Source of the DNA: Phycisphaerales bacterium
GTDB lineage: Bacteria > Planctomycetota > Phycisphaerae > Sedimentisphaerales > Anaerohalosphaeraceae
Assembly (NCBI GenBank): GCA_003152975.1
Contig: PMBP01000227.1
Coordinates: 1-11,025, forward strand
Reading direction: 5' to 3'
DNA: 11,025 nt
Shown here: piece by piece, positions 2 to 9,900 of the stretch
Layout of the letters: the number at the start of each line of letters is the position of its first letter
Numbering within the stretch: position 1 is the stretch's first letter
Program-made: the position numbers and the translations under genes
The notes under the pieces: model-generated
Seen by the model: only the letters and a program-made list of their open reading frames with translations
The model's database searches: none
What the model was told of the DNA's origin: nothing

Positions 2-1096
2 CCGATGGGCATGCACCTCTTCGAGCTGCGGGATGACGGCGAATTGGTCCTCATCGACGCCAACCCCGCCGCCGACCGCCACACCGGAATCCACACCGCC
101 GACCGGATCGGCAAGACCATCGAGCAGGCATTTCCCGGCCTGGTGGGCACGGAGGTTTCCGCGCGATACAAGCAGATCGCCGCTGGCGGACAGGCCTGGC
201 AGACGACCAATCTGTTCTACCAGGACAACGCGATTCACGGGGCGTTCGATATTGTGGCGTTCCAGACCGTTCCGGGGCGAATGGCCACGATGTTCCTGGA
301 AGTCTCGGACCGGATTCGCGCCGAACAGCAGCGCGAACAACTGCTCAAGGCCCTGCAGGCCAAGACCGAGGAACTCGAAAGCATCATTTATGTCAGCTCC
401 CATGACCTTCGCTCGCCTCTGGTGAACATCCAGGGCTTCAGCGGCGAACTGGGTGAGTCCTGCCGCCAGATCCGTGAGCTCCTCTCCGGCGATGCGGTGC
501 CCGAGTCCGACCATCAGCAACTCGAAGAGCTGCTCGGCCGGGACATCCCCTCGGCCCTCGAGTACATCACCACCAGTGTCAGCAAGCTGGACGCTCTGCA
601 GAAGGGCCTGTTGAAGATCTGTCGCATCGGCCGCGAATCGCTGGAGATCGTCCCCGTCGCCATGAACGAGCTGCTCGACGGCGTCATCAAAAGCACCCGG
701 TACCAGCTCGACAACTGCCGGGCCCAGGTAATCGTCGAGCCCTTGCCCATCTGTCTGGCAGATGCCGGACAACTGACCCAGGTCTTTACGAATCTGATCG
801 ACAATGCCATAAAATACCGCAGTCCCGACCGGTCCCTCGTGATCCGCATCCACGGCCGTGCCGAGGGCGCTCACGCGGTCTATACCGTCGCCGACAATGG
901 CGTCGGCATCGCCCCCGAACACCAGCCGAAGGTCTTCGAGATGTTCCACCAGCTCGATCCCCTCAACGGGCCCGGCGGCGAAGGCCTCGGCCTGACCATC
1001 GTCAAACGCATTCTCGGCCGCATGGATGGCCAGGTCCGCCTTGAATCCGCCTTCGGCGTCGGATCGGCCTTCTTCGTTCTCCTGCCGAAGGCCTGA
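2..1096 (+). CDS. PAS-domain sensor histidine kinase (5' end outside window)
   Basis: Two-component sensor kinase that autophosphorylates on histidine and passes the phosphate to a response regulator not present here. The frame is open to the window edge. The first ATG (base 5) falls inside the PAS fold, which resumes at once with DANPAADRHTG, so the true start is probably upstream. Counting from base 5: PAS about 1-100; short coiled-coil linker 101-128; HisKA with H-box SSHDLRSPL, phospho-acceptor His133; ATPase domain with N-box NLIDNAIKY (263-271), G1 box ADNGVGIAP (296-304), F-box near 311 and G2 box GGEGLGL (324-330). The gap of about 130 residues between H-box and N-box is somewhat long and includes a charged insertion around 160-185. 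No transmembrane segment is visible in this part, so it may be soluble or anchored by missing N-terminal domains. It ends without a receiver domain and converges on the lipoprotein gene, with stop codons 32 bases apart. Confidence 0.93.
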   Translation, partial: PMGMHLFELRDDGELVLIDANPAADRHTGIHTADRIGKTIEQAFPGLVGTEVSARYKQIAAGGQAWQTTNLFYQDNAIHGAFDIVAFQTVPGRMATMFLEVSDRIRAEQQREQLLKALQAKTEELESIIYVSSHDLRSPLVNIQGFSGELGESCRQIRELLSGDAVPESDHQQLEELLGRDIPSALEYITTSVSKLDALQKGLLKICRIGRESLEIVPVAMNELLDGVIKSTRYQLDNCRAQVIVEPLPICLADAGQLTQVFTNLIDNAIKYRSPDRSLVIRIHGRAEGAHAVYTVADNGVGIAPEHQPKVFEMFHQLDPLNGPGGEGLGLTIVKRILGRMDGQVRLESAFGVGSAFFVLLPKA

Positions 1097-1133
1097 TCCG
1101 CCGTCCAACTGTCGAGCGATTCACCCGGTCAGG
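1092..1133. terminator. Possible weak bidirectional terminator hairpin
   Basis: Arms CCTGATCCG (1092-1100) and CGGTCAGG (1126-1133) can pair over eight bases with one bulged T and a 25-base loop. The structure spans the stop codons of two convergent genes. It has no T-tract on either strand, so this is only a candidate for ending transcription of the kinase and of the head operon. Confidence 0.22.
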
Positions 1134-1716
1134 ATTCGGCCTTGACCTCGGCGACGATCTTTCGGGTCAGGGCAGATTGCCCTTGCTGGGCCTGCTTGAA
1201 GGCCGCGGCCGCATCCGAATTGTTTCGCTTAAAGACCTCATTTCCCTTGATAATTTCTTGCACCGCCCGGTTGGTGTCGCGGGCTTTTTGCACAGTTCGC
1301 GCAATCCGCGCCCCGGATACGCCCCCGAGTACGCCCGCCACCGCCAGCCCCGCCTGCAACAGCACATCCGCCGCCTGCCACGGATCGGGCCGCTGCGAGG
1401 CCTCCTTCGTCGCCGCAGTCGCCAACCGCTGGTTCGTTTCGCTCAGCGCTTGCTGCGGCGTCTCGACGGCGGGCGGTTCCTTCGGCATTCCATAGTCGCC
1501 CACGAACGCCGCGCTCTGCCGTGCCGACAGTTCCGTCAAGCCGCACAGTTCCTGCGACGCGCTCTGCTCCCTGGCCGCATTCGCCGCCAGCTGCGTCGTG
1601 CGGTAATGCGCCCAGGCGTTGGCTTTCATCGCCTCGCCCGGCGCAAACCGCAGTTGATCACACCCCGCCGTCGCCACGCAAGCCATCATCACTGTTATCC
1701 CTGTCAACCGATTCAT
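1129..1716 (-). CDS. Predicted lipoprotein, last gene of the phage-head operon
   Basis: 195-residue protein of unrecognised family. The N-terminus has a basic start, a hydrophobic core and a lipobox-like TAGC with Cys19 as the probable lipidated residue; Thr at -3 is less usual than Leu. After an Ala/Gln-rich helical stretch (30-70) and a Pro-containing linker (75-90) comes a Gly/Ala-rich hydrophobic segment at about 117-138, then a charged amphipathic helix to the C-terminus. The start is fixed by a GGAGGAC Shine-Dalgarno (1723-1729) and overlaps the preceding stop as ATGA, implying translational coupling. It could be a virion-associated, lysis-related (outer spanin-like) or membrane-tethering protein. 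At about 177 mature residues it is large for an outer spanin and lacks the usual Pro-rich stretch, so function stays open. Confidence 0.75.
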   Translation of the reverse strand: MNRLTGITVMMACVATAGCDQLRFAPGEAMKANAWAHYRTTQLAANAAREQSASQELCGLTELSARQSAAFVGDYGMPKEPPAVETPQQALSETNQRLATAATKEASQRPDPWQAADVLLQAGLAVAGVLGGVSGARIARTVQKARDTNRAVQEIIKGNEVFKRNNSDAAAAFKQAQQGQSALTRKIVAEVKAES

Positions 1717-2003
1717 GGTTTGTCCTCCGACTTGAAAGCTCCTCGTTGTCCGGCCCCATTGGTTTCCAATGTGCTCAGCCGAACTTCATGCCAAATCGTT
1801 TTCTCGCTGACGCCCTCTAACCGTTCGCCGAACCGGCTCAATCGTTCGCTCAGCTTGGCCACATCGTAGCTCACTCGATCCAGCCGCCTTTGTGTATCCA
1901 TCCATTGCCCCAGGATCAACGACGCCAGTAGAACAAGTTGCACCAGCATCGTCAGATTCAATTGCCGATCGAACCGCCACCGATTCTCCTTCGTGACCGC
2001 CAT
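1713..2003 (-). CDS. Small one-pass membrane protein with coiled coil
   Basis: 96-residue protein. A basic N-terminus (residues 1-14) is followed by one hydrophobic segment (about 16-34) and then a heptad-like charged helix (about 36-80) rich in Leu, Arg and Glu. By the positive-inside rule the coiled coil should lie outside the cytoplasm. The start has a clear GGGAGG Shine-Dalgarno (2008-2013). The stop overlaps the start of the downstream lipoprotein by four bases, so the two are probably made together. The topology resembles small phage membrane proteins such as inner-membrane spanins and DUF2730-like proteins, but no family is recognised with certainty. A longer frame in another register, starting at base 2064, covers the same DNA and was rejected because it lacks a ribosome site and has a composition unlike a real protein. 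Confidence 0.75.
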   Translation of the reverse strand: MAVTKENRWRFDRQLNLTMLVQLVLLASLILGQWMDTQRRLDRVSYDVAKLSERLSRFGERLEGVSEKTIWHEVRLSTLETNGAGQRGAFKSEDKP

Positions 2004-2109
2004 CGTTGCCTCCCATAATTACACCATTCAAATTGCCGATTTCGGTTTCGATTTCATCCTGCATCGTTGTTCCACTTTGCGCTTCGGCGAGAAGTTACCG
2101 TTTCATCCC

Positions 2110-2144
2110 AAATTGAAAATCGAAAATCAGAAATTGAAAATTTA
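2110..2144. repeat. AT-rich degenerate repeat patch (AAATTGAAAAT words)
   Basis: Two exact 11-base copies of AAATTGAAAAT (2110-2120 and 2131-2141) flank the related word CGAAAATCAG. The patch touches the stop codon of the connector gene and fills part of the gap before the membrane-protein gene. It is far more AT-rich than the flanking genes and shares CAATTT/TTGAAA words with two other gaps of the same operon (4131-4150 and 4686-4733). Confidence 0.6.
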
Positions 2145-2792
2145 TTCTCTCCTCAGCCGCATCGTTCCGCCGTCGATCACCGTGTCGCCCTGCCCGTCGT
2201 CGTCGCTGTCGAGCCACAGCCGGCAGCGCTCCCGTGCCCGCTCGTACATTCGACGGAAATACTCCGCTTTATCCCAATCGGCCGGCGAACCGCTAATGGC
2301 CCGGCAACCATAGACATCCGCCAGAATCGCATACACCTCGGCCGGCCGCAGCGGGTCGTCTGTGATGATCTGCTCTTGGCCGCAATCGGCAACCGCAAAT
2401 CCCGGCCGGATCCCGAAGTACTGCGTCAGAAAGTACGCCGCATCCTCGCCCCTGGCCTCCAGGGTCACCGCGCGGTAGCTCACGGCCGTTGCGTCGCCCG
2501 GCCCGACGGCGGCCGCCGCGTCGTTTCCGCGAATCACCGAGACCGTCAACTCTGTCGCCGAGACCCGGGCCGTAATCTCGTAAGCCCCATCGACCTTGCC
2601 GTCCCCGCTCCGCAGCCAGATCACCTGTCCCGCCGCCACGCCCGCCGCGGTGAAGTTGGCGCCGCTGGCGATGAACCGCGTGCCCGCAATCACGCCGCCG
2701 TCGCCCTTGCACAACACCGGCAACCCCATCGCCTCCGCAAACACCGCCGAATCCACCCGCAACACATCCGCATCCTTTGAAAATCGTTCCAT
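2142..2792 (-). CDS. Probable phage head-completion / connector protein
   Basis: 216-residue protein encoded directly after the major capsid gene, the usual place for head-tail connector or head-completion proteins. Residues about 25-105 look like a beta-rich small domain with many Gly, Val and Thr; residues about 110-216 are helical with a conserved-looking end (EYFRRMYERARERCRLWLDS, then an acidic DDDGQGD turn). The C-terminal half resembles the short helical connector proteins (gp6/gp15-like class) that dock under the portal; the N-terminal beta domain is an extra part. This role is inferred from position and general shape, not from a diagnostic motif. The start at 2792 is supported by a GGGAGGAAA Shine-Dalgarno (2797-2805). 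A structured 167-base gap separates it from the capsid stop codon. Confidence 0.75.
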   Translation of the reverse strand: MERFSKDADVLRVDSAVFAEAMGLPVLCKGDGGVIAGTRFIASGANFTAAGVAAGQVIWLRSGDGKVDGAYEITARVSATELTVSVIRGNDAAAAVGPGDATAVSYRAVTLEARGEDAAYFLTQYFGIRPGFAVADCGQEQIITDDPLRPAEVYAILADVYGCRAISGSPADWDKAEYFRRMYERARERCRLWLDSDDDGQGDTVIDGGTMRLRRE

Positions 2793-2832
2793 GGTTTTCC
2801 TCCCGTCGTTGTATGTAATCCTTCATAGTTCC

Positions 2833-2902
2833 GTGCAACCCGCGGCGGCAGTCCTCCACCCCTGCCGCGGCGGTTTGCACGATCCAACCGACTCGTGCAA
2901 AC
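2833..2902 (-). promoter_or_regulatory. Two mutually exclusive intercistronic hairpins after the capsid gene
   Basis: On the transcript, GTTTGCACGA (2902-2893) pairs perfectly with TCGTGCAAAC (2882-2873) around a 10-base loop. Bases 2880-2862 can instead pair with 2851-2833, giving a 19-position stem with 17 matches and a 10-base loop. The segment GTGCAAAC (2880-2873) belongs to both stems, so they cannot form together. The structure begins 57 bases after the capsid stop codon and ends 40 bases before the connector start. No U-tract follows, so a classical terminator is unlikely; a processing, stabilising or attenuation element is the better reading. Confidence 0.6.
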
Positions 2903-2959
2903 CCCCAACCCTCCTCGTCCCCCTCCGTTACCGCGTTTTACCGATACGAATTGATCGGA

Positions 2960-4114
2960 TTAGGCGACGCTGAGCCCGCGGATCAGGCCGTGCGCGGCCT
3001 CGTTGCGGAGCTCCAGCGTGTATTCGCCGATCAGCTCGCCGCATTCGTAGTCGCCCGAACTGGCCAGCGCCTTGTACTGGAAGCTGCGACCCGCCAGCGG
3101 CAGCACCGAAATCCGCGACGAATCCAGCAGCAGCGCCATGTCCAGCGGCATCCACCGTGTCGTCACAATCCGGCAAACGCCGAAGTCGCTCTGGTAAACA
3201 TTGACGCTGTCGCCGAAGGTCGTCTCCGACGACGCGTACAGCCGCATCCCCGTCAGGAACTGATTGATCCGCCGTTTCTGGTTGCCGCCAACCACGATTA
3301 AGTCCACATTGCCGCTGCTGTTTTCCCAGATCTTGCGCAGAGTGTAGTTGATCTTCGCCTCGTCGAGGTCGCTGCCCGCCGGAAATCCCGAATCTCCCAC
3401 GGCGAACAGATTGCTGGCCAGATGACGCAAAATGCCCTTCATCGTCCGCCGCACGGTGACGCTGCCCTGCGGATCGACGCTCGGCAGGCCGCCGTTGATA
3501 AGGGTGTTCTCCAGGTCGCGCACAAGCTCGCGGAGCCGCTGTTGCTTCTGGAAGTCCATCTCGTCGGCCAGGCCCAGGTGGCCCGCCGCCAGGTCGCTGC
3601 CGCTGACTTCCACCGACGCGGTGAAAATCTGCGTGTAGTTGGCCTTGCGGCTGCGGTTGGTAAACCGCGTCGCGGGCCGGTCCGACCCTTCCAGCGCCGC
3701 GTTGCCCAGGATGCGGATCGTCTGTCCGTTGGCGATCGCCTCGGCCGCCGTGCCCGCATACGCCCGCGTCACCGTCAGCGTGTTGCCGGCGATATTGGTC
3801 ACCAGGATCAACTCGCGCGAACCGAGGACCTGGATCTGGTCGCCGATGCGAAACCGATTGCCGTTGGCCACATCAAAGGCCGCCTCCGTCAGCGGGTTGC
3901 TGATCGTCGTATCGCTGATGGTGTCCTTGTTCGGCAGCAGATCGTCCTCGAGCCACTCGTGCCGTGTGCTGGCCGCCTCGCGCATCGGGTCGCCCAGCGC
4001 GCTGAGCAGCGGCGTCTCGTACGGCGACAAAATCGCGATCAGATCGCTGACATCTTCCGTCAGTTCCGGCAGGGTGGTTCCCGCCGAGTAGGTTGCTTTT
4101 CCGGTAAATGGCAT
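2960..4114 (-). CDS. Phage major capsid protein, SU10/DUF5309 type
   Basis: 384-residue HK97-fold-type shell protein. The N-terminus (TYSAGTTLPELTEDVSDLIA, then SPYETPLLSALG and HEWLEDDLL at about 53-61) is the hallmark of the SU10/DUF5309 capsid family. A beta-rich insertion (about 80-138, with DVANGNRFRIGDQIQVL and NTLTVTRAY) fits the extra surface domain of these proteins. The spine-helix region follows (about 183-208, DEMDFQKQQRLRELVRDLEN), then MKGIL (225-229) and a C-terminal axial-domain-like region (about 255-330). The length is usual for the family and no frameshift or stop interrupts it, so it looks functional. The chosen start has AAAGGAGG six bases upstream; an upstream TTG start seven codons earlier lacks one. 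No protease gene is beside it. Confidence 0.92.
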   Translation of the reverse strand: MPFTGKATYSAGTTLPELTEDVSDLIAILSPYETPLLSALGDPMREAASTRHEWLEDDLLPNKDTISDTTISNPLTEAAFDVANGNRFRIGDQIQVLGSRELILVTNIAGNTLTVTRAYAGTAAEAIANGQTIRILGNAALEGSDRPATRFTNRSRKANYTQIFTASVEVSGSDLAAGHLGLADEMDFQKQQRLRELVRDLENTLINGGLPSVDPQGSVTVRRTMKGILRHLASNLFAVGDSGFPAGSDLDEAKINYTLRKIWENSSGNVDLIVVGGNQKRRINQFLTGMRLYASSETTFGDSVNVYQSDFGVCRIVTTRWMPLDMALLLDSSRISVLPLAGRSFQYKALASSGDYECGELIGEYTLELRNEAAHGLIRGLSVA

Positions 4115-4120
4115 GATTGC

Positions 4121-4128
4121 CCTCCTTT
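4121..4128 (-). promoter_or_regulatory. Shine-Dalgarno of the capsid gene
   Basis: AAAGGAGG on the minus strand, six bases before the ATG at 4114. It fixes the start there rather than at the TTG at 4135. It is among the strongest ribosome sites in the operon, fitting a protein needed in hundreds of copies. Confidence 0.8.
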
Positions 4129-4130
4129 CG

Positions 4131-4150
4131 TTCAATGGTTTTCAATTTCG
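4131..4150. repeat. Short AT-rich patch with CAATTT words
   Basis: TTCAATGGTTTTCAATTT repeats TTCAAT within a few bases, just upstream of the capsid ribosome site. It uses the same words as the patches at 2110-2144 and 4686-4733. It is the shortest and weakest of the three and could be chance on its own. Confidence 0.35.
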
Positions 4151-4156
4151 GCCGAC

Positions 4157-4178
4157 CGTCGAAGGCCACCCTTCGTCG
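4157..4178 (-). promoter_or_regulatory. Hairpin directly after the scaffold stop codon
   Basis: Arms CG-T-CGAAGG (4157-4165) and CCTTCG-T-CG (4170-4178) form a six-base perfect stem plus two outer pairs across one mismatch, with a four-base loop. On the transcript it begins at the base following the scaffold gene's TAA and lies 42 bases ahead of the capsid ATG. With no U-tract it is more likely a processing or stability element than a full terminator. Confidence 0.45.
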
Positions 4179-4685
4179 TTACATCGACCGAACCCGCGTT
4201 CGCCGGACGCGCATGTATTCGTGCACATCCGACCGGCGGCCGCTCGCCGCCGCCTGTTGCGCTGCCTGCGCCATCGTCGGGCTCGTGCCCGGCCGTTCCT
4301 TGGCCCCGGCGGTTTTCTTCGGGGCCGAATTCGCTTCCCGCTGGTGTGACGGGAACAGGTGGGGCTTGTCCTGCCGCAGCCGCTCGATGGCGGCGTCAAG
4401 GTCACCGCCGTCGCCCATCCGTTTCTGCGTCAGCAGCACACCCGCCTCGACATCCGTCACGCCCGCGGCCGTCAGCCGCTTGGACAATTCCTCGTCGTGC
4501 CGTTGCGACTGAAGCTGCTCGGTCAACTGACCGTGTTCCCGACGGAGCTGCTCGACCTGCCGCGTCAGTTCCTCGGCCTGCTGCTCGGCGGCCTGGGCCC
4601 GCTTGCGATACCGAATCGCCTCGCTGACCGGAACAACTTTTTCGTCCACTTGCTGTTCATCCAAATTGCTCTGTTCTTCGCTCAT
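4179..4685 (-). CDS. Phage scaffold-like protein
   Basis: 168-residue protein encoded between the portal and capsid genes, where tailed-phage scaffolding proteins sit. Scaffolds guide capsid assembly inside the prohead and leave or are cleaved afterwards. Residues 1-20 are acidic and disordered-looking; about 25-65 form a strong coiled coil with heptads of Leu, Gln and Glu; about 70-110 is a small helical region ending in KPHLF, a motif common at this place in phage scaffold proteins; the tail (115-150) is Ala/Gln/Pro-rich and the extreme C-terminus strongly basic (RVRRTRVRSM), as expected for a part that binds the inner capsid wall. The start at 4685 has GGAGGAA just upstream; a longer frame beginning at 4724 would start inside AT-rich repeat sequence. 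No protease motif is present. Confidence 0.85.
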   Translation of the reverse strand: MSEEQSNLDEQQVDEKVVPVSEAIRYRKRAQAAEQQAEELTRQVEQLRREHGQLTEQLQSQRHDEELSKRLTAAGVTDVEAGVLLTQKRMGDGGDLDAAIERLRQDKPHLFPSHQREANSAPKKTAGAKERPGTSPTMAQAAQQAAASGRRSDVHEYMRVRRTRVRSM

Positions 4686-4733
4686 GGCTTCCTCCGAATA
4701 AATTTGAAATTGGATATTGAACATTGTAAATTG
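4686..4733. repeat. AT-rich degenerate patch between portal and scaffold genes
   Basis: The 48-base gap is mostly A and T and is built from imperfect words such as AAATTTGAAATTGG, ATTGAACATTG and TAAATTG. It resembles the patch at 2110-2144 in word use, though not in exact order. It carries the scaffold ribosome site at its downstream end. No promoter was identified. Confidence 0.5.
4689..4695 (-). promoter_or_regulatory. Shine-Dalgarno of the scaffold gene
   Basis: GGAGGAA on the minus strand, three bases before the ATG at 4685. It selects this start over the in-frame ATG 13 codons upstream, whose extra residues would be translated from the AT-rich patch. Confidence 0.7.
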
Positions 4734-6245
4734 TCAGTATCCCAGTTCCGTTAACACCGTCTCCGGGGCCACGCCCAGCTCCAGCTTGGCCTTGGCCTCC
4801 TGGAGTCGCTCCGCCGTGTCTTCCGGCAGCGGGCTGGGGAACACGACCTCGACTTGCCGTTCTTCGGGCGTCGTCGGGAAAATCCCGTAGCGGTCCAGCA
4901 GCTCCAGGGCCGTCCGCAGGATTGCACGAATCCCCTCGCCGTAGGATCGCTGCTTGCGAAGCGTTTTGGCGAGCATACCCATGTAGGTCATCTTCAGCGC
5001 CACGCCGCTGGTGAGGTTGCCGATCTTGTTTTTCAGCAATCCCGCGACGACGGGCGTTACGCCGCTGATCTTGTCCATCGCCTCGCGGATCTGCTCGATG
5101 TGCTGCTCTTCGCTGGGCGAGCCGTCGTCCCCGCCAAAGGCCTCGATCTTGGCCTCGGCATTGTCCGTGCACCACATCCGACCCGGCGCGACGGGCCGGT
5201 CGTACGCCCCGTCGAGGCCCTTGACCAGATACATCTTGAAGGATTGAAAGGTGATCCGGCTGGCCCGATCGCTCAGCCGCGTGTTGAGTTCGTCCTGCAG
5301 CCCGATCAGCGGCTCGACATCGCTGAGCCCTTCATAGCGATACGGCTGCGCGAGATTCTGGATGTGCACCACCGGCACCGCGCCCAGCAAGTTTTCGCCT
5401 TCGGCGCTCAGCTCGCCGTCTTCGTATCGCTGCCATGCCGTCGGCCCCAGGATTTCGGTGATCACGGCCGCCTGCCGCCGATCACCCGCCGCGCCGCCCA
5501 CCAGCCGCGACAACCAGCCGCCGCCGGGCGCGACGGCGTTCTTCGCCTGGCGGAAGTGCTGCACGAAGTACCGCATCCGCCGGTAATCATTTTCGTCCAG
5601 GACCGGCAGCGCCCGAGGCGCCTCGATCAACTCCAGAGCGATCTGCGAGGCCTTCTGCACCGCGGCCTCGATCGCCTCGGCGTTCTCCTCGCCCTGATAA
5701 GCGATCAAAGGACGGCTCTGCATCACCCACTCCTCCCCCGGCCGGATGATGCAATCGACGAATCCGTACACGCTCCCGAGCACCGCCAGTTCCTGGAAAA
5801 AGCCAACGCCGCCGTTGCCCGAAATCACAGCCGTCAGTATTCGCTCAAGGGTTCTGCGTTTCGACGGCTCCGGCGACGGGCTGACCAACCTCACGCCCTT
5901 GCCAAACAGAAAATCCACCATGGCGTTGATCCGCCATGCGATAGCGTTCTCGATGACCACCTCTTTGCGCTGGATCTGCGGGGCGCGGCGAAGCCCGACT
6001 TGCTCGAAATTGCCGCAGGGAATCGCCCCGGTGATCCGCGCGGGAAGCCCCATCTCCTGCGCCTGACGATAGCCCCGGGCACTGTCGCATTCGCCCTCCA
6101 CGGCCGTCTCGGTCGTCGGGTTGCTGTAATACTCCCACAGCCGGCCATAGCGGCGAATATTTTCGCCCGCCTGATGATCCACCAGCCATTCAATAAATAT
6201 TTCGTTCAATTCCCCGTCCCCAAATATCCGTAAATCCAATCCCAT
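4734..6245 (-). CDS. Phage portal protein, SPP1 gp6-like
   Basis: 503-residue portal subunit. Such proteins form the dodecameric ring at one capsid vertex through which DNA is packaged and ejected. Family features in order: helical N-terminal wing (1-95); NAIAWRINAMVDFLFGKGV (100-118), matching the conserved helix of gp6-like portals; beta wing and core (150-300); GLSDVEPLIGLQDELNTRL (306-324), the stretch leading into the stem and clip; SGVTPVVAG (394-402) and NLTSGVALKM (410-419), the crown-side helix with the family's LSGxAL-like motif; and a C-terminal helical tail. Length is normal and the frame intact. The start at 6245 is chosen because AAAGGAGA lies five bases upstream; the 22 extra codons of the longest frame read as untranslated leader. 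It is the first gene of the operon. A terminase would normally precede it, but only an intergenic region does. Confidence 0.93.
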   Translation of the reverse strand: MGLDLRIFGDGELNEIFIEWLVDHQAGENIRRYGRLWEYYSNPTTETAVEGECDSARGYRQAQEMGLPARITGAIPCGNFEQVGLRRAPQIQRKEVVIENAIAWRINAMVDFLFGKGVRLVSPSPEPSKRRTLERILTAVISGNGGVGFFQELAVLGSVYGFVDCIIRPGEEWVMQSRPLIAYQGEENAEAIEAAVQKASQIALELIEAPRALPVLDENDYRRMRYFVQHFRQAKNAVAPGGGWLSRLVGGAAGDRRQAAVITEILGPTAWQRYEDGELSAEGENLLGAVPVVHIQNLAQPYRYEGLSDVEPLIGLQDELNTRLSDRASRITFQSFKMYLVKGLDGAYDRPVAPGRMWCTDNAEAKIEAFGGDDGSPSEEQHIEQIREAMDKISGVTPVVAGLLKNKIGNLTSGVALKMTYMGMLAKTLRKQRSYGEGIRAILRTALELLDRYGIFPTTPEERQVEVVFPSPLPEDTAERLQEAKAKLELGVAPETVLTELGY

Positions 6246-6250
6246 CGTTA

Positions 6251-6258
6251 TCTCCTTT
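6251..6258 (-). promoter_or_regulatory. Shine-Dalgarno of the portal gene
   Basis: AAAGGAGA on the minus strand, five bases before the ATG at 6245. It decides the start in favour of MGLDLRIFGDGE over the upstream in-frame codon at 6311. Confidence 0.75.
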
Positions 6259-6314
6259 CGTCTGGTCATTTTTGCCTTTTGTCTTTCCACCCTTCCTGAA
6301 AATGTGCGCAAACG

Positions 6315-6346
6315 GTACGAAATTGTCAGACCGTCAAATTCGTAAC
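6315..6346. promoter_or_regulatory. Operator-like inverted repeat upstream of the head operon
   Basis: TACGAA (6316-6321) and TTCGTA (6339-6344) are inverted around a 17-base spacer that itself contains GAC/GTC words. The site lies 70-100 bases before the portal start, where a repressor of the operon could bind. The arms are short and no matching repressor gene is in the window, so this is tentative. Confidence 0.22.
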
Positions 6347-6571
6347 TCTTTGCGGAAAAACGGTTTACCGATTTTGAAATGCCCTAAAAATAGCAAGATA
6401 GTGATAGCGCGTTTTGTTCGATCCGACCCCCTAAAAGATAAAGTAAATTTGATGTGCACCCAAACCAACCGCCTGATCCTCCCCCTCCCTCATGCCCCCA
6501 TTCCGGCCCATCATGTCCAATATCGGTAAAAATCCGGATGTTGGTTTTTGCGGAATTATGACACTATGCTC

Positions 6572-6601
6572 TTGTATCGGAACTGACAAAAAAGTTATAA
6601 T
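6572..6601 (+). promoter_or_regulatory. Predicted promoter for the secreted-protein gene
   Basis: A perfect TATAAT (6596-6601) follows a poor -35 candidate TTGTAT (6572-6577) at 18 bases. It points toward the large secreted-protein gene, whose ATG lies 331 bases further on, so the transcript would have a long leader. The -10 match in GC-rich DNA makes chance less likely, but the weak -35 limits confidence. Confidence 0.45.
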
Positions 6602-6931
6602 ACAGTGTAACCTATGCCTTTGGAAAGAGAGACGGAGAGAAGTTCGTGGAGGAAGTTTGTAACGATGAGTATGCAATCCTCGCTTGTTCCCCCGCGCGAT
6701 GCTTTCCCCGCGCTTGACCGTGGCATGATTCGCACCCGCAGGATTCGGCATCGCTGATTTTGACCCGCGCACGGTAACAACCAAACAATATGAAACAGCA
6801 GGACGAAGTCAACCGGGCATAGTCTCCGCGCAGATTGACGCGATTTTGGCCGTTGTCGCTTCACGACACGGATTCGATAATCGATCGTCTTTGGAACGAG
6901 GTAAGAGAGAACGAGTTGAGGAGACAAGAAC

Positions 6932-9900
6932 ATGAATGCAAAAACTGTATTGTGTTTGTCCATGATTGTGATGGTGTCGCCGGCGGCGCTGGCGATTATC
7001 GCCGGTTTCAACGCCGACATCCACATGGACATTCCGGGAGCCGTCGCCAACGATTTCCATATCGAAGGCACCCTCAAATCCGGCGCGATCGGGGGCAACT
7101 GGAATCGTCCGCCGATCTTAGTCGGTCACATCGACGGGGCGTTTCCGACCTTTACTTACATCATCACCCCAGACCCGACAAACCCAGACCAGAATGCGTA
7201 CAAATTCAGGGCCGATTGGAACGGATTCGCTTACAGGTATTGCGAGATCCTGCATGTGGGGTTGTTCTTCGACCTGGAGTGCCATAATCTCGTGTACGAT
7301 CTGGTCGGCTGGTGGACCTTCAACGGCCAGCGTCTGGGCGGTTTCAACGGAGGGGCGATTCCCATTTCGGGATTTATCGTCCAGGACCTGCCCGATCAGG
7401 GCCCCCAGCAGATGCGAATCCGGAATGACTCGCAGCTTGGCGGCGGAGGCGGCGGTGGCGGAATTGGATCCGGCATCCCGCTGGAGATTCAGCAGCTACA
7501 GCTTGTAGTCATGCCCCGTGAGATGGCCCTGGAGATGTTCGGCGGATCGCTCGAAAACATCTTCCCCGAATTGCGTCTCGGCGGAATGCAGGAACAATTG
7601 CCGTGGATTCCGGTGGCCAATGCCCGCGGTCCGATCAACACGGACAATCCGCTGAAGTTTATGCCCGACAGCTTCTTCGATATCTTCCTGGAAGTCGGTA
7701 TTCCGGGTTCGGGCAACGGCTTGTTCCCGGTCGAGCCGATGCACATCGAGCCCGGGGGCGTCCTGTTATCGCGGATGCTGATGGCTTTCACGGACAATAC
7801 CGGCCAGGTTCAGGATCACCGATGGGTCTGGCACATGCACGAAGGGCACCCGCTCGGGGATCTGGGCGACGCGCCCGACAGCACCAACCATACGGGCGTT
7901 GCGATGACGGCCTATCCTCCGGGAGGACCGATGGGCGTGCAGGCGAATTACCCGACCGTCTTTATGGGCCCGGCGCCGTTCGGCCCGATGCACATGAATC
8001 CGCAGGCGATCTTTCTGGGGGCGAATGTCTCACCGGAAATGGATGCCGATCTGCCGCCGGATCTGGACGGCCCGACGAACATCAACCCGCCGGCCAACCT
8101 GGCTAATCAGGACGGTTTTGATGACGGCGTGTTGCCGTTCCAGCTCAAGCCGTGTCAGATGAACCGCTTCCAGTATATCGTCACCGTCAATCAACCGGTG
8201 GTTCAGCAGATGTTCGTCAATGTCTGGTTCGACTGGAACCGCGACGGCGACTGGGACGACACACTGCAGTGTGCCGCCGGCGTGGCGCCGTCGCCCGAAT
8301 GGGCCGTACAGAATCAGGTTGTTCCCACAGGAGCCGTCGGTCAATTCGTGATGATCACGCCCCCCTTCATGGCGTGGTTCCCGGCCGGGGCTCCCGTGTC
8401 CGATACCTGGATGCGGATCACAATTGCCGAACAGCCGTGGATTCCGCCGATGCCGCCGGTTCTATTGGGCTATGGCGGTTCCGGCCCGCAGGGCGGGTAC
8501 AAGTTCGGCGAAACCGAAGATTACTACCTGAGGTTCGAGTTCCCGCCGGATCAGGATTTCGGCGATGCACCCGATGGGTTCGTGCCCGGATATCCGACGC
8601 TGCTGGCCAATAACGGCGCCCGGCATACGGTTGTACCGGGAATGTTTCTGGGGAACCTGATCGACGCCGAGTTTGACGGTCAGCCGAACGCAAACGCCAC
8701 CGGTGACGATCTCAATAATCTGGCGGATGAAGACGGCGTGGCGTTTGTCACGCCCCTGGTCGCCGGCCAGCCCGCGAAAATTGTCGTTACCGCTTCGGCC
8801 AACGGATTGCTCCAGGCGTGGTTCGATTACAATCAGAACAAGAGCTGGGGCGACGCCGGTGAGCAGATCGCTACGGATTTGGCGCTGAATGCCGGTCCCA
8901 ATTCGATCGGCTTCACCGTTCCGGCCACGGCCGTCCCCGGCCAGACCTTCGCGCGGTTCCGTTTCAGCAGCGTCAAGGGATTACCGTTCTATGGCCCGGC
9001 GCCCGACGGCGAAGTGGAAGACTACATGGTCAAGATCGAAAAACCCGCAATCGAGATTGACAGCTACGACGATGTCAGCGCGGAAATCGAATTGACCAGT
9101 CCCGACGGGACTGCGCAATCGATCCCGGCCAACGGATCGGCCAAGATGAATGTCTATTTTGAAGGACCTGCCGAAGGCGATGCCAACGACAGCGACGGCG
9201 ACGGCCTCGATGATGTCAAGACCGAGATGGTCGCACTGAATCTGGCCGGCACCGCCCCGCTGGGTCCCTTTACCATTAAGTTGAGAGCCGCACCGGCCTC
9301 GACAGGCGAGATGGAAGAAACGGTCAACAACACCCCCGGCACGCTGGATGTGCCGCCCTTTACCGCGGTGGGAACCATCGACAGCTTCTTCGATATCTAT
9401 GTCGAAGTGACTCTGGGGACCAACACCTTTACGACGGCCAATCCGTTGCGCGTTCGCGGCAACCTGACGCACAAACCCGCCAATCCATGCGATGTATTGA
9501 TCGGCCAGAACAGCGAGCCGCTGATTGATGTGACGGGTCAGCCGATAGGATACCGCGTCAAGCTGTCCGAGTTGGTCCTGGTTCGCTGCAAGCTGGACTG
9601 GGGGGATGCGCCCGACGGCGATTTTGCCCCAGGATATCCCACGCTGGCGATCCATAACGGCGCCCGGCACGAGATCGATCCGAAGATTTTCCTGGGCAAC
9701 CTGATCGATCCGGAGCGCGACGGCCAGCCGAATGCGACGGCCACCGGCGACGACATCAACAACCTGGCCGACGAAGACGGCGTCAAGTTCCTCACTTGGC
9801 CGCTGGTCCCGGGCAAGTGGGCCAAGATCCAGGTGACGGCCTCGGTCAACGGCCTGTTGTACGGCTGGATTGATTACGGCGCGGATAACTCCTGGGCCGA

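What the first reader, a model, noticed from the sequence alone, without database searches (positions are those of the whole stretch)
1129..6245. Stand-alone capsid operon without terminase, tail or integration genes
Portal, scaffold, SU10-type capsid and connector genes are intact and in canonical order with strong ribosome sites. Yet no terminase precedes the portal and no tail gene follows. Host-type genes on the opposite strand close both ends. Intact frames and GC-rich coding like the neighbours argue against recent arrival or fast decay. Options: a satellite that borrows a helper's terminase and tail, a gene-transfer-agent-like split cluster, a domesticated protein container, or an early-stage prophage remnant. 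The terminal membrane protein plus lipoprotein pair makes a plain remnant slightly less obvious, because these small genes are kept open and coupled.
Basis: partly seen in the sequence, partly recalled or inferred. Interest (0 to 1): 0.72.

Follow-up and report, generated by a model that had tools for sequence, protein, structure and literature searches.

The report
Inherited phage-head genes kept without tail
A set of genes for building and filling a virus head has been handed down inside a large group of planctomycete bacteria much like ordinary genes; this genome keeps the head and the DNA-packing motor at separate places but has no recognisable matching tail genes, so it may make DNA-filled shells for the cell's own use.

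Summary
In detail: intact portal, scaffold, SU10-type capsid, head-tail adaptor, membrane protein and lipoprotein genes lie between host genes. It is not a local remnant. The capsid gene occurs in 172 of 397 sampled genomes of the class (153 with a single match), and in 27 genomes its tree shares 18 of 24 splits with RpoB (label shuffles: at most 2). The "missing" terminase exists: a stand-alone TerL gene on another contig of this genome (C210). Its family is found in 166 of the 172 capsid-bearing genomes (odds ratio 102). Many relatives also have a TerS gene and carry about 5-8 kb of tail-like genes between adaptor and membrane protein. In 26 of 66 capsid-bearing genomes of the order, this one included, the tail marker has no strong match, yet 26 of 26 keep TerL. 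dN/dS is 0.12-0.24. Best reading: the head locus of an old, dispersed, largely vertically inherited GTA-like packaging system, in a tail-reduced form that arose several times. DNA packaging and transfer are inferred, not shown. My searches of the held papers found no such system described in Planctomycetota.

The parts
4734..6245 (-). portal protein, 503 aa
   Evidence: PF05133 3.2e-20, phrog_64 1.3e-25; dN/dS 0.12 against genus-mate
4179..4685 (-). head scaffolding protein, 168 aa
   Evidence: PF06810 1.3e-8, phrog_2303 2.4e-5; dN/dS 0.24
2960..4114 (-). major capsid protein, SU10 type, 384 aa
   Evidence: PF17236 6.2e-84, phrog_1328 5.9e-78; in 172 of 397 class genomes; dN/dS 0.12
2142..2792 (-). 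head-tail adaptor (connector), 216 aa, with a beta-barrel stretch
1713..2003 (-). small protein with one N-terminal hydrophobic helix and a following heptad-like stretch, 96 aa; inner-spanin-like by layout only
   Evidence: conserved in 20 loci of the order; dN/dS 0.16; the spanin analogy is recalled, not tested
1129..1716 (-). lipoprotein-like protein, 195 aa, helical, conserved motif around LRFAP..QKQNAW; outer-spanin-like by layout only
   Evidence: aligned in 25 loci, lipobox Cys invariant; dN/dS 0.18; relatives in the protein database are unnamed or 'hypothetical'
6246..6931 (.). divergent intergenic region holding the likely promoter of the cluster; about 39 bp near 6510-6548 nearly identical in the genus-mate
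   Evidence: alignment with L033, read by eye; no Rfam match up to E 0.5
2..1096 (+). flanking host gene: histidine kinase, cut by the contig end, convergent with the cluster
   Evidence: PF02518 2.7e-24; relative at the same place in L033
6932..10849 (+). flanking host gene: GEVED/DUF7901 protein, divergent from the cluster
   Evidence: PF25470 5.9e-47, PF20009 1.6e-34; relative at the same place in L033

Best explanation
The window holds the head locus of a phage-derived DNA-packaging system that became a resident of these bacteria long ago and has since been inherited mostly vertically, with its genes dispersed: head genes here, TerL on contig C210, and in relatives a TerS beside ParB-like, ABC-ATPase-like and acetyltransferase-like genes. 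Likely working order: scaffold and capsid protein form a procapsid around the portal; the TerS/TerL motor, made from another locus, docks on the portal and fills the head, presumably with host DNA because no replication or integration gene is linked; the adaptor seals the portal; the membrane protein/lipoprotein pair acts at the envelope, perhaps for release. The ancestor probably also had a short tail; in this genus, and at least three more times in the order, that module was lost while head and motor stayed. Shown by computation: gene identities, dispersal, co-occurrence of capsid and TerL, tree congruence, purifying selection, absence of strong matches to the tail markers. Inferred: that particles form, that they hold host DNA, what the membrane pair does, and whether DNA reaches another cell.
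For: Capsid in 172 of 397 class genomes, 135 of 283 of good quality, 153 of 172 with a single match. Own-genome TerL at C210:59-1480, 512-aa frame, phrog_2 2.6e-15, Walker and nuclease motifs seen by eye. Capsid and TerL: both 166, capsid only 6, TerL only 48, neither 177; with weak TerL hits dropped 162, 10, 33, 192. RpoB, capsid and TerL trees of 27 genomes: 18 of 24 and 16 of 24 splits shared with RpoB; distance correlations 0.68, 0.71 and 0.84, 0 of 999 permutations reaching them. dN/dS 0.12-0.24 for six window genes and 0.20 for TerL against G292; 0.07-0.23 and 0.07-0.13 in two further tail-less pairs. Tail marker F7: strong in 40 of 66 capsid-bearing genomes of the order, not in 26; TerL in 39 of 40 and 26 of 26. 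Adaptor-to-membrane-gene gap is bimodal: 5-294 bases in 23 loci, 4861-8244 in 22 (some loci are the same genome fetched twice). In outgroup G009 TerL sits 1.5 kb upstream of the portal in ordinary phage order, and in tail-less G241 TerS and TerL follow the lipoprotein on the same strand. TerS: 10 of 13 members match phrog_2538; in 48 of 66 capsid-bearing and 1 of 12 capsid-less genomes of the order. No integrase match within 40 kb in 10 genomes.
Against: No particle, packaged DNA or transfer is shown. 225 of 397 class genomes have no capsid match (148 of 283 of good quality), and 48 have TerL without it, so the system is often lost or lies in assembly gaps. TerS was not found in the window's own genome or in G292. 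Six supported splits disagree with RpoB, two in the capsid tree and four in the TerL tree, so some transfer or reconstruction error is possible. The own genome is not in that test, having no RpoB match; G292 stands for it. Known GTAs have tails (recalled); this locus has none. The own genome also holds other prophages, one with a distant F7 relative and one contig with a partial F4.
Confidence: 0.72

Rival explanations
1. An ordinary prophage remnant in slow decay: the head genes happen to have survived and mean nothing.
For: No tail, integrase or terminase at the locus; the tail module is gone in many relatives.
Against: Six open genes with dN/dS 0.12-0.24; unlinked TerL also under purifying selection (0.20) and present in 26 of 26 capsid-bearing order genomes without the tail marker; congruence with RpoB; among the rows listed only three capsid matches (G359, G273, G156) carry an in-frame stop.
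Confidence: 0.07
2. A phage satellite (PICI-like) that borrows a helper's terminase and tail.
For: Head genes without tail; the own genome holds other prophages, including one with its own terminase and an HK97-type portal (C329) and a Mu-like one (C531).
Against: No tyrosine integrase within 40 kb in 10 genomes (serine recombinases not tested), shared flanks in the genus-mate, near single copy, and its own co-inherited TerL.
Confidence: 0.04
3. A domesticated protein container that no longer packages DNA (encapsulin-like use of a capsid).
For: The tail is gone; the shell protein is among the best conserved parts (dN/dS 0.07-0.12 in three tail-less pairs).
Against: Portal, scaffold, adaptor and TerL, all of use for DNA packaging, are kept and selected.
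Confidence: 0.1
4. A full GTA whose tail genes in this genus are unrelated to those of the sister clades and lie elsewhere in the genome.
For: GTAs are often split over several loci (PMC11841831, passages); TerL already is; families outside the order use other genes after the adaptor (F20-F22). Only two tail markers were searched genome-wide.
Against: F7 is absent from G292 and other tail-less genomes, and F4 from 15 of 16 tail-less genomes searched, including complete chromosomes. Tail genes of other kinds were not searched for.
Confidence: 0.35

Closest known systems
Gene transfer agents (RcGTA and other known GTAs)
   Same: Remnant-like sets of structural and packaging genes, spread over several loci, co-evolving with hosts (features as given in PMC11841831, passages); purifying selection measured here.
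   Different: Unrelated-looking parts: SU10-type capsid, SPP1-type portal and N4/SU10/GP4-like adaptor; host phylum Planctomycetota; TerL detached from the head genes; tail module lost in many lineages; DNA content and transfer unknown.
Short-tailed phages with SU10-type capsid (SU10, GP4)
   Same: SU10_MCP family capsid, adaptor fold, and in full-length relatives a GP4 fibre I homologue (PF23140, 1.7e-43).
   Different: Nearest phage capsid in the phage collection is 31% identical (Sporosarcina phage Lietuvens). No integrase near, TerL often elsewhere, no tail here.
Encapsulins (recalled as the standard domesticated HK97-fold shells)
   Same: A phage-capsid-like shell kept by the cell.
   Different: Here portal, scaffold, adaptor and TerL are kept too, which points to DNA packaging.

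Membership tests
gene transfer agent | phage-derived structural and packaging genes resident in the genome | tested here: met
   Portal, scaffold, capsid, adaptor in the window; TerL at C210
gene transfer agent | vertical inheritance with the host over long times | tested here: met
   18 of 24 (capsid) and 16 of 24 (TerL) splits shared with RpoB in 27 genomes; 2 and 4 supported conflicts
gene transfer agent | purifying selection on the genes | tested here: met
   dN/dS 0.12-0.24 window versus G292; 0.07-0.23 and 0.07-0.13 in two other tail-less pairs
gene transfer agent | genes split over several loci (common in GTAs, not universal) | tested here: met
   Of 57 genomes compiled, 24 have capsid and TerL on one contig: 10 within 20 kb, 4 at 20-60 kb, 10 beyond 60 kb
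gene transfer agent | no linked integration genes | tested here: met
   No PF00589 match within 40 kb of the capsid gene in 10 complete or near-complete genomes, and none on the capsid contig in 5 others. Serine recombinases not tested
gene transfer agent | tail for delivery | tested here: not met
   Tail markers F7 and F4 of sister clades absent from the locus and from G292 genome-wide; other tail types not searched. Met in full-length relatives, so the window form is called GTA-like, not a GTA
gene transfer agent | particles carrying random host DNA, transfer to recipients | not testable with these tools
   Needs particles
gene transfer agent | TerS without a detectable DNA-binding domain (said of known GTAs in PMC11841831, passage) | tested here: inconclusive
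   The TerS family of relatives matches phrog_2538 and has an N-terminal stretch that looks like a helix-turn-helix by eye; not found in the own genome
complete prophage | linked terminase, head, tail and integrase | tested here: not met
   for the window; for relatives
phage satellite (PICI-like) | integrase and own replication genes at the element | tested here: not met
   No integrase match within 40 kb in 10 genomes; replication genes not searched as such
encapsulin | shell protein with cargo and without portal or packaging motor | tested here: not met
   Portal and TerL present and selected

The most novel reading that the evidence does not exclude
An old, class-wide, host-owned DNA-packaging machine that in several lineages has shed its tail and works as a maker of tail-less, DNA-filled capsids, released by or docked at the envelope through the membrane protein/lipoprotein pair. 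DNA would be protected outside the cell and taken up by another route, or stored inside it. The roughly 30-nm hexagonal particles already photographed from the cultured relative Poriferisphaera heterotrophicis ZRK32 may be its product.
Probability: 0.3. Interest if true: 0.92.

Novelty: new variant of a known kind. Interest (0 to 1): 0.75.

Why it matters
If right, a phage-derived head-and-motor system is part of the inherited equipment of a large planctomycete class, a phylum for which my searches found no such description. Repeated loss of the tail while the motor is kept would make a long-standing question testable: what is selected in GTA-like systems, DNA delivery or something else. Cultured, sequenced strains carry it (G362 and G243 match the genome lengths of Poriferisphaera ZRK32 and KS4), so particles can be looked for now.

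Tried and rejected

Errors mended on the way: one search aligned a scaffold protein with tail proteins (A1, not used); one search used antisense frames for RpoB of G009 and G055 (mended); one search took a wrong frame for the own TerL (mended). Dropped before the tree test: of 30 genomes, G000 and G396 had no RpoB match and G369 a partial one, leaving 27.
Full report

HOW WIDE AND HOW OLD. The capsid protein was searched in 397 genomes drawn from the class: 172 match (135 of 283 of good quality); 153 of the 172 have one match, and in the order 64 of 66 do (my count). Identity falls with kinship: 89% in the genus, mostly 64-74% in the order, lower elsewhere. Trees of RpoB, capsid and TerL for 27 genomes agree: 18 of 24 splits (capsid/RpoB), 16 (TerL/RpoB), 16 (capsid/TerL), against at most 2 for 999 label shuffles of the capsid tree; distance correlations 0.68, 0.71 and 0.84 with 0 of 999 permutations reaching them. 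Against this stand two supported capsid splits and four supported TerL splits that RpoB lacks. The own genome is not in the test because no RpoB was found in it. 225 of 397 genomes lack a capsid match, so the system is far from universal.

THE MISSING TERMINASE. PF03237 misses most of this TerL family (6 of 22 genomes). One of its hits, a lone 490-aa gene, used as query, found relatives in 214 of 397 class genomes, including the own genome at C210:59-1480 and G292 at C248. The own protein matches phrog_2 terminase large subunit (2.6e-15). Capsid and TerL occur together in 166 genomes, capsid alone 6, TerL alone 48, neither 177 (odds ratio 102, p 3e-58; dropping weak TerL hits gives 162, 10, 33, 192). 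These tests treat related genomes as independent, so the p value is too small, but the pattern is plain. In 57 genomes whose positions I compiled, 24 have both genes on one contig: 10 within 20 kb, 4 at 20-60 kb, 10 beyond 60 kb, up to 3.15 Mb. In G009, outside the order, TerL lies 1.5 kb upstream of the portal in ordinary phage order; in G241 TerS and TerL follow the lipoprotein gene on the same strand. Upstream of TerL some relatives have an operon of an ABC-ATPase-like, an acetyltransferase-like, a ParB_N protein and a 160-aa protein. The last is TerS by PHROGs (10 of 13 members match phrog_2538, best 1.8e-8). TerS was found in 48 of 66 capsid-bearing and 1 of 12 capsid-less genomes of the order, but not in the own genome or G292.

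THE TAIL. In full-length relatives about 5-8 kb lie between adaptor and membrane protein, with a GP4 fibre I homologue (PF23140, 1.7e-43) and a 610-aa protein (F7) with only a sub-threshold Dit-like match. The gap is bimodal: 5-294 bases in 23 loci and 4861-8244 in 22; by my count these are 15 and 21 distinct genomes or records. Genome-wide, F7 matches strongly in 40 of 66 capsid-bearing genomes of the order and not in 26: f1 17 of 21, f3 3 of 3, f2 2 of 5, f4 2 of 26, f5 1 of 10, f7 1 of 1. F4 is absent from 15 of 16 tail-less genomes searched; the exception is the own genome, with a partial 144-aa match at a contig end. The own genome's weak F7 match lies on a contig with Mu transposase domains. 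On the RpoB tree tail-less G158 is sister to full G315, tail-less G259 to full G152, full G056 to tail-less f1 genomes, and f3 is tail-less, while outgroups G009, G043, G050 and G117 match F7. By eye this needs at least four losses. TerL is present in 39 of 40 genomes with F7 and 26 of 26 without. I did not search for tail genes of other kinds.

SELECTION. Window against G292: dN/dS portal 0.12, scaffold 0.24, capsid 0.12, adaptor 0.17, membrane protein 0.16, lipoprotein 0.18, TerL 0.20. dS is high for the membrane protein (1.7) and lipoprotein (1.1), so those two are rough. Two other tail-less pairs give 0.07-0.23 and 0.07-0.13. A decaying head would not keep an unlinked motor under selection.

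MEMBRANE PROTEIN AND LIPOPROTEIN. Both are conserved across families of the order. A membrane protein followed by an overlapping lipoprotein gene is the layout of spanins (recalled). In relatives they follow the tail genes, where lysis genes often lie (recalled). No fold or family supports this, so it stays a guess. A trans-envelope conduit is an alternative.

NOT A KNOWN PHAGE. Best capsid match among 50,697 phage records is 31% identical; portal 24-26% and TerL 32% over 42% of its length in the best rows. The IMG/VR scan found one capsid contig (L032). In 10 complete or near-complete genomes no tyrosine-integrase match lies within 40 kb of the capsid gene (nearest about 42 kb, G032).

MECHANISM. 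Proposed: procapsid assembly on the portal; TerL (with TerS where present) fills the head; the adaptor closes it; the membrane pair serves release or docking. DNA is probably host DNA because nothing linked would replicate or excise the locus. Confidence 0.72 for a resident, inherited DNA-packaging head system. Whether this form is truly tail-less or has an unrecognised tail is about even.

A POSSIBLE SIGHTING. The cultured class member Poriferisphaera heterotrophicis ZRK32 released hexagonal particles of about 30 nm with nitrate or ammonium, without killing the cells; the authors assigned them a 21.9-kb genome absent from the chromosome (PMC10945688; section 10 and passages read). That record (OP650935) is 84.8% identical over 80% to Pseudomonas phage SCYZ1, whose genome is 47.5 kb. 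It has no match to our capsid, portal or TerL profiles, and 51.5% GC against 46.28% reported for ZRK32. A 30-nm head is too small for 21.9 kb by ordinary packing density (inference). Genome G362 has exactly the ZRK32 length (5,234,020) and matches both capsid (2.6e-121) and TerL (7.2e-57). So those particles could come from this system. This is a lead, not a result.

MEMBERSHIP AND NOVELTY. It meets the genomic marks of gene transfer agents given in a review (remnant-like, multi-locus, vertically inherited; PMC11841831, passages) but the window form fails on the tail and nothing is known of its DNA. I file it as GTA-like: a new variant of a known kind.

Noticed in passing
L309 (OP650935.1, 1-21911): The record 'Poriferisphaera phage ZRK32' is 84.8% identical over 80% to Pseudomonas phage SCYZ1 and has none of our capsid, portal or TerL families; it may be a fragment of a Pseudomonas phage rather than the source of the planctomycete's particles.
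   Followed up: partly
L134:2192-4683, L135:11991-14510, L136:11249-14530: Upstream of TerL in several genomes lies an operon of an ABC-ATPase-like protein, an acetyltransferase-like protein, a ParB_N protein and TerS. The first two are also next to TerL in other families (L083, L084, L137, L142). Their role is unknown.
   Followed up: partly
L237-L242, L246-L248: Families outside the class (f48 and others) carry a related capsid at 45-51% identity, mostly one match per genome, in clusters whose other genes do not match our profiles: possibly a second, parallel resident capsid system.
   Followed up: partly
L031 (G000:C329) and L167 (G000:C531): The own genome also holds an HK97-type prophage fragment (Terminase_6 plus Phage_portal) and a Mu-like element with a distant relative of tail protein F7.
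   Followed up: partly
window 6510-6548: About 39 bp in the divergent region upstream of the portal are nearly identical in the genus-mate while the surroundings vary; a possible operator or promoter element (by eye).
   Followed up: no
L032:19666-20862, L045, L051 and others: In 8 loci a minus-strand spore-photoproduct-lyase-like radical SAM gene lies between or near the membrane protein and lipoprotein genes.
   Followed up: no
L034:15672-17330: In some full-length clusters F5 carries a Laminin_G_3 (lectin-like) domain (PF13385 1.1e-18), possibly a fibre or attachment function.
   Followed up: no
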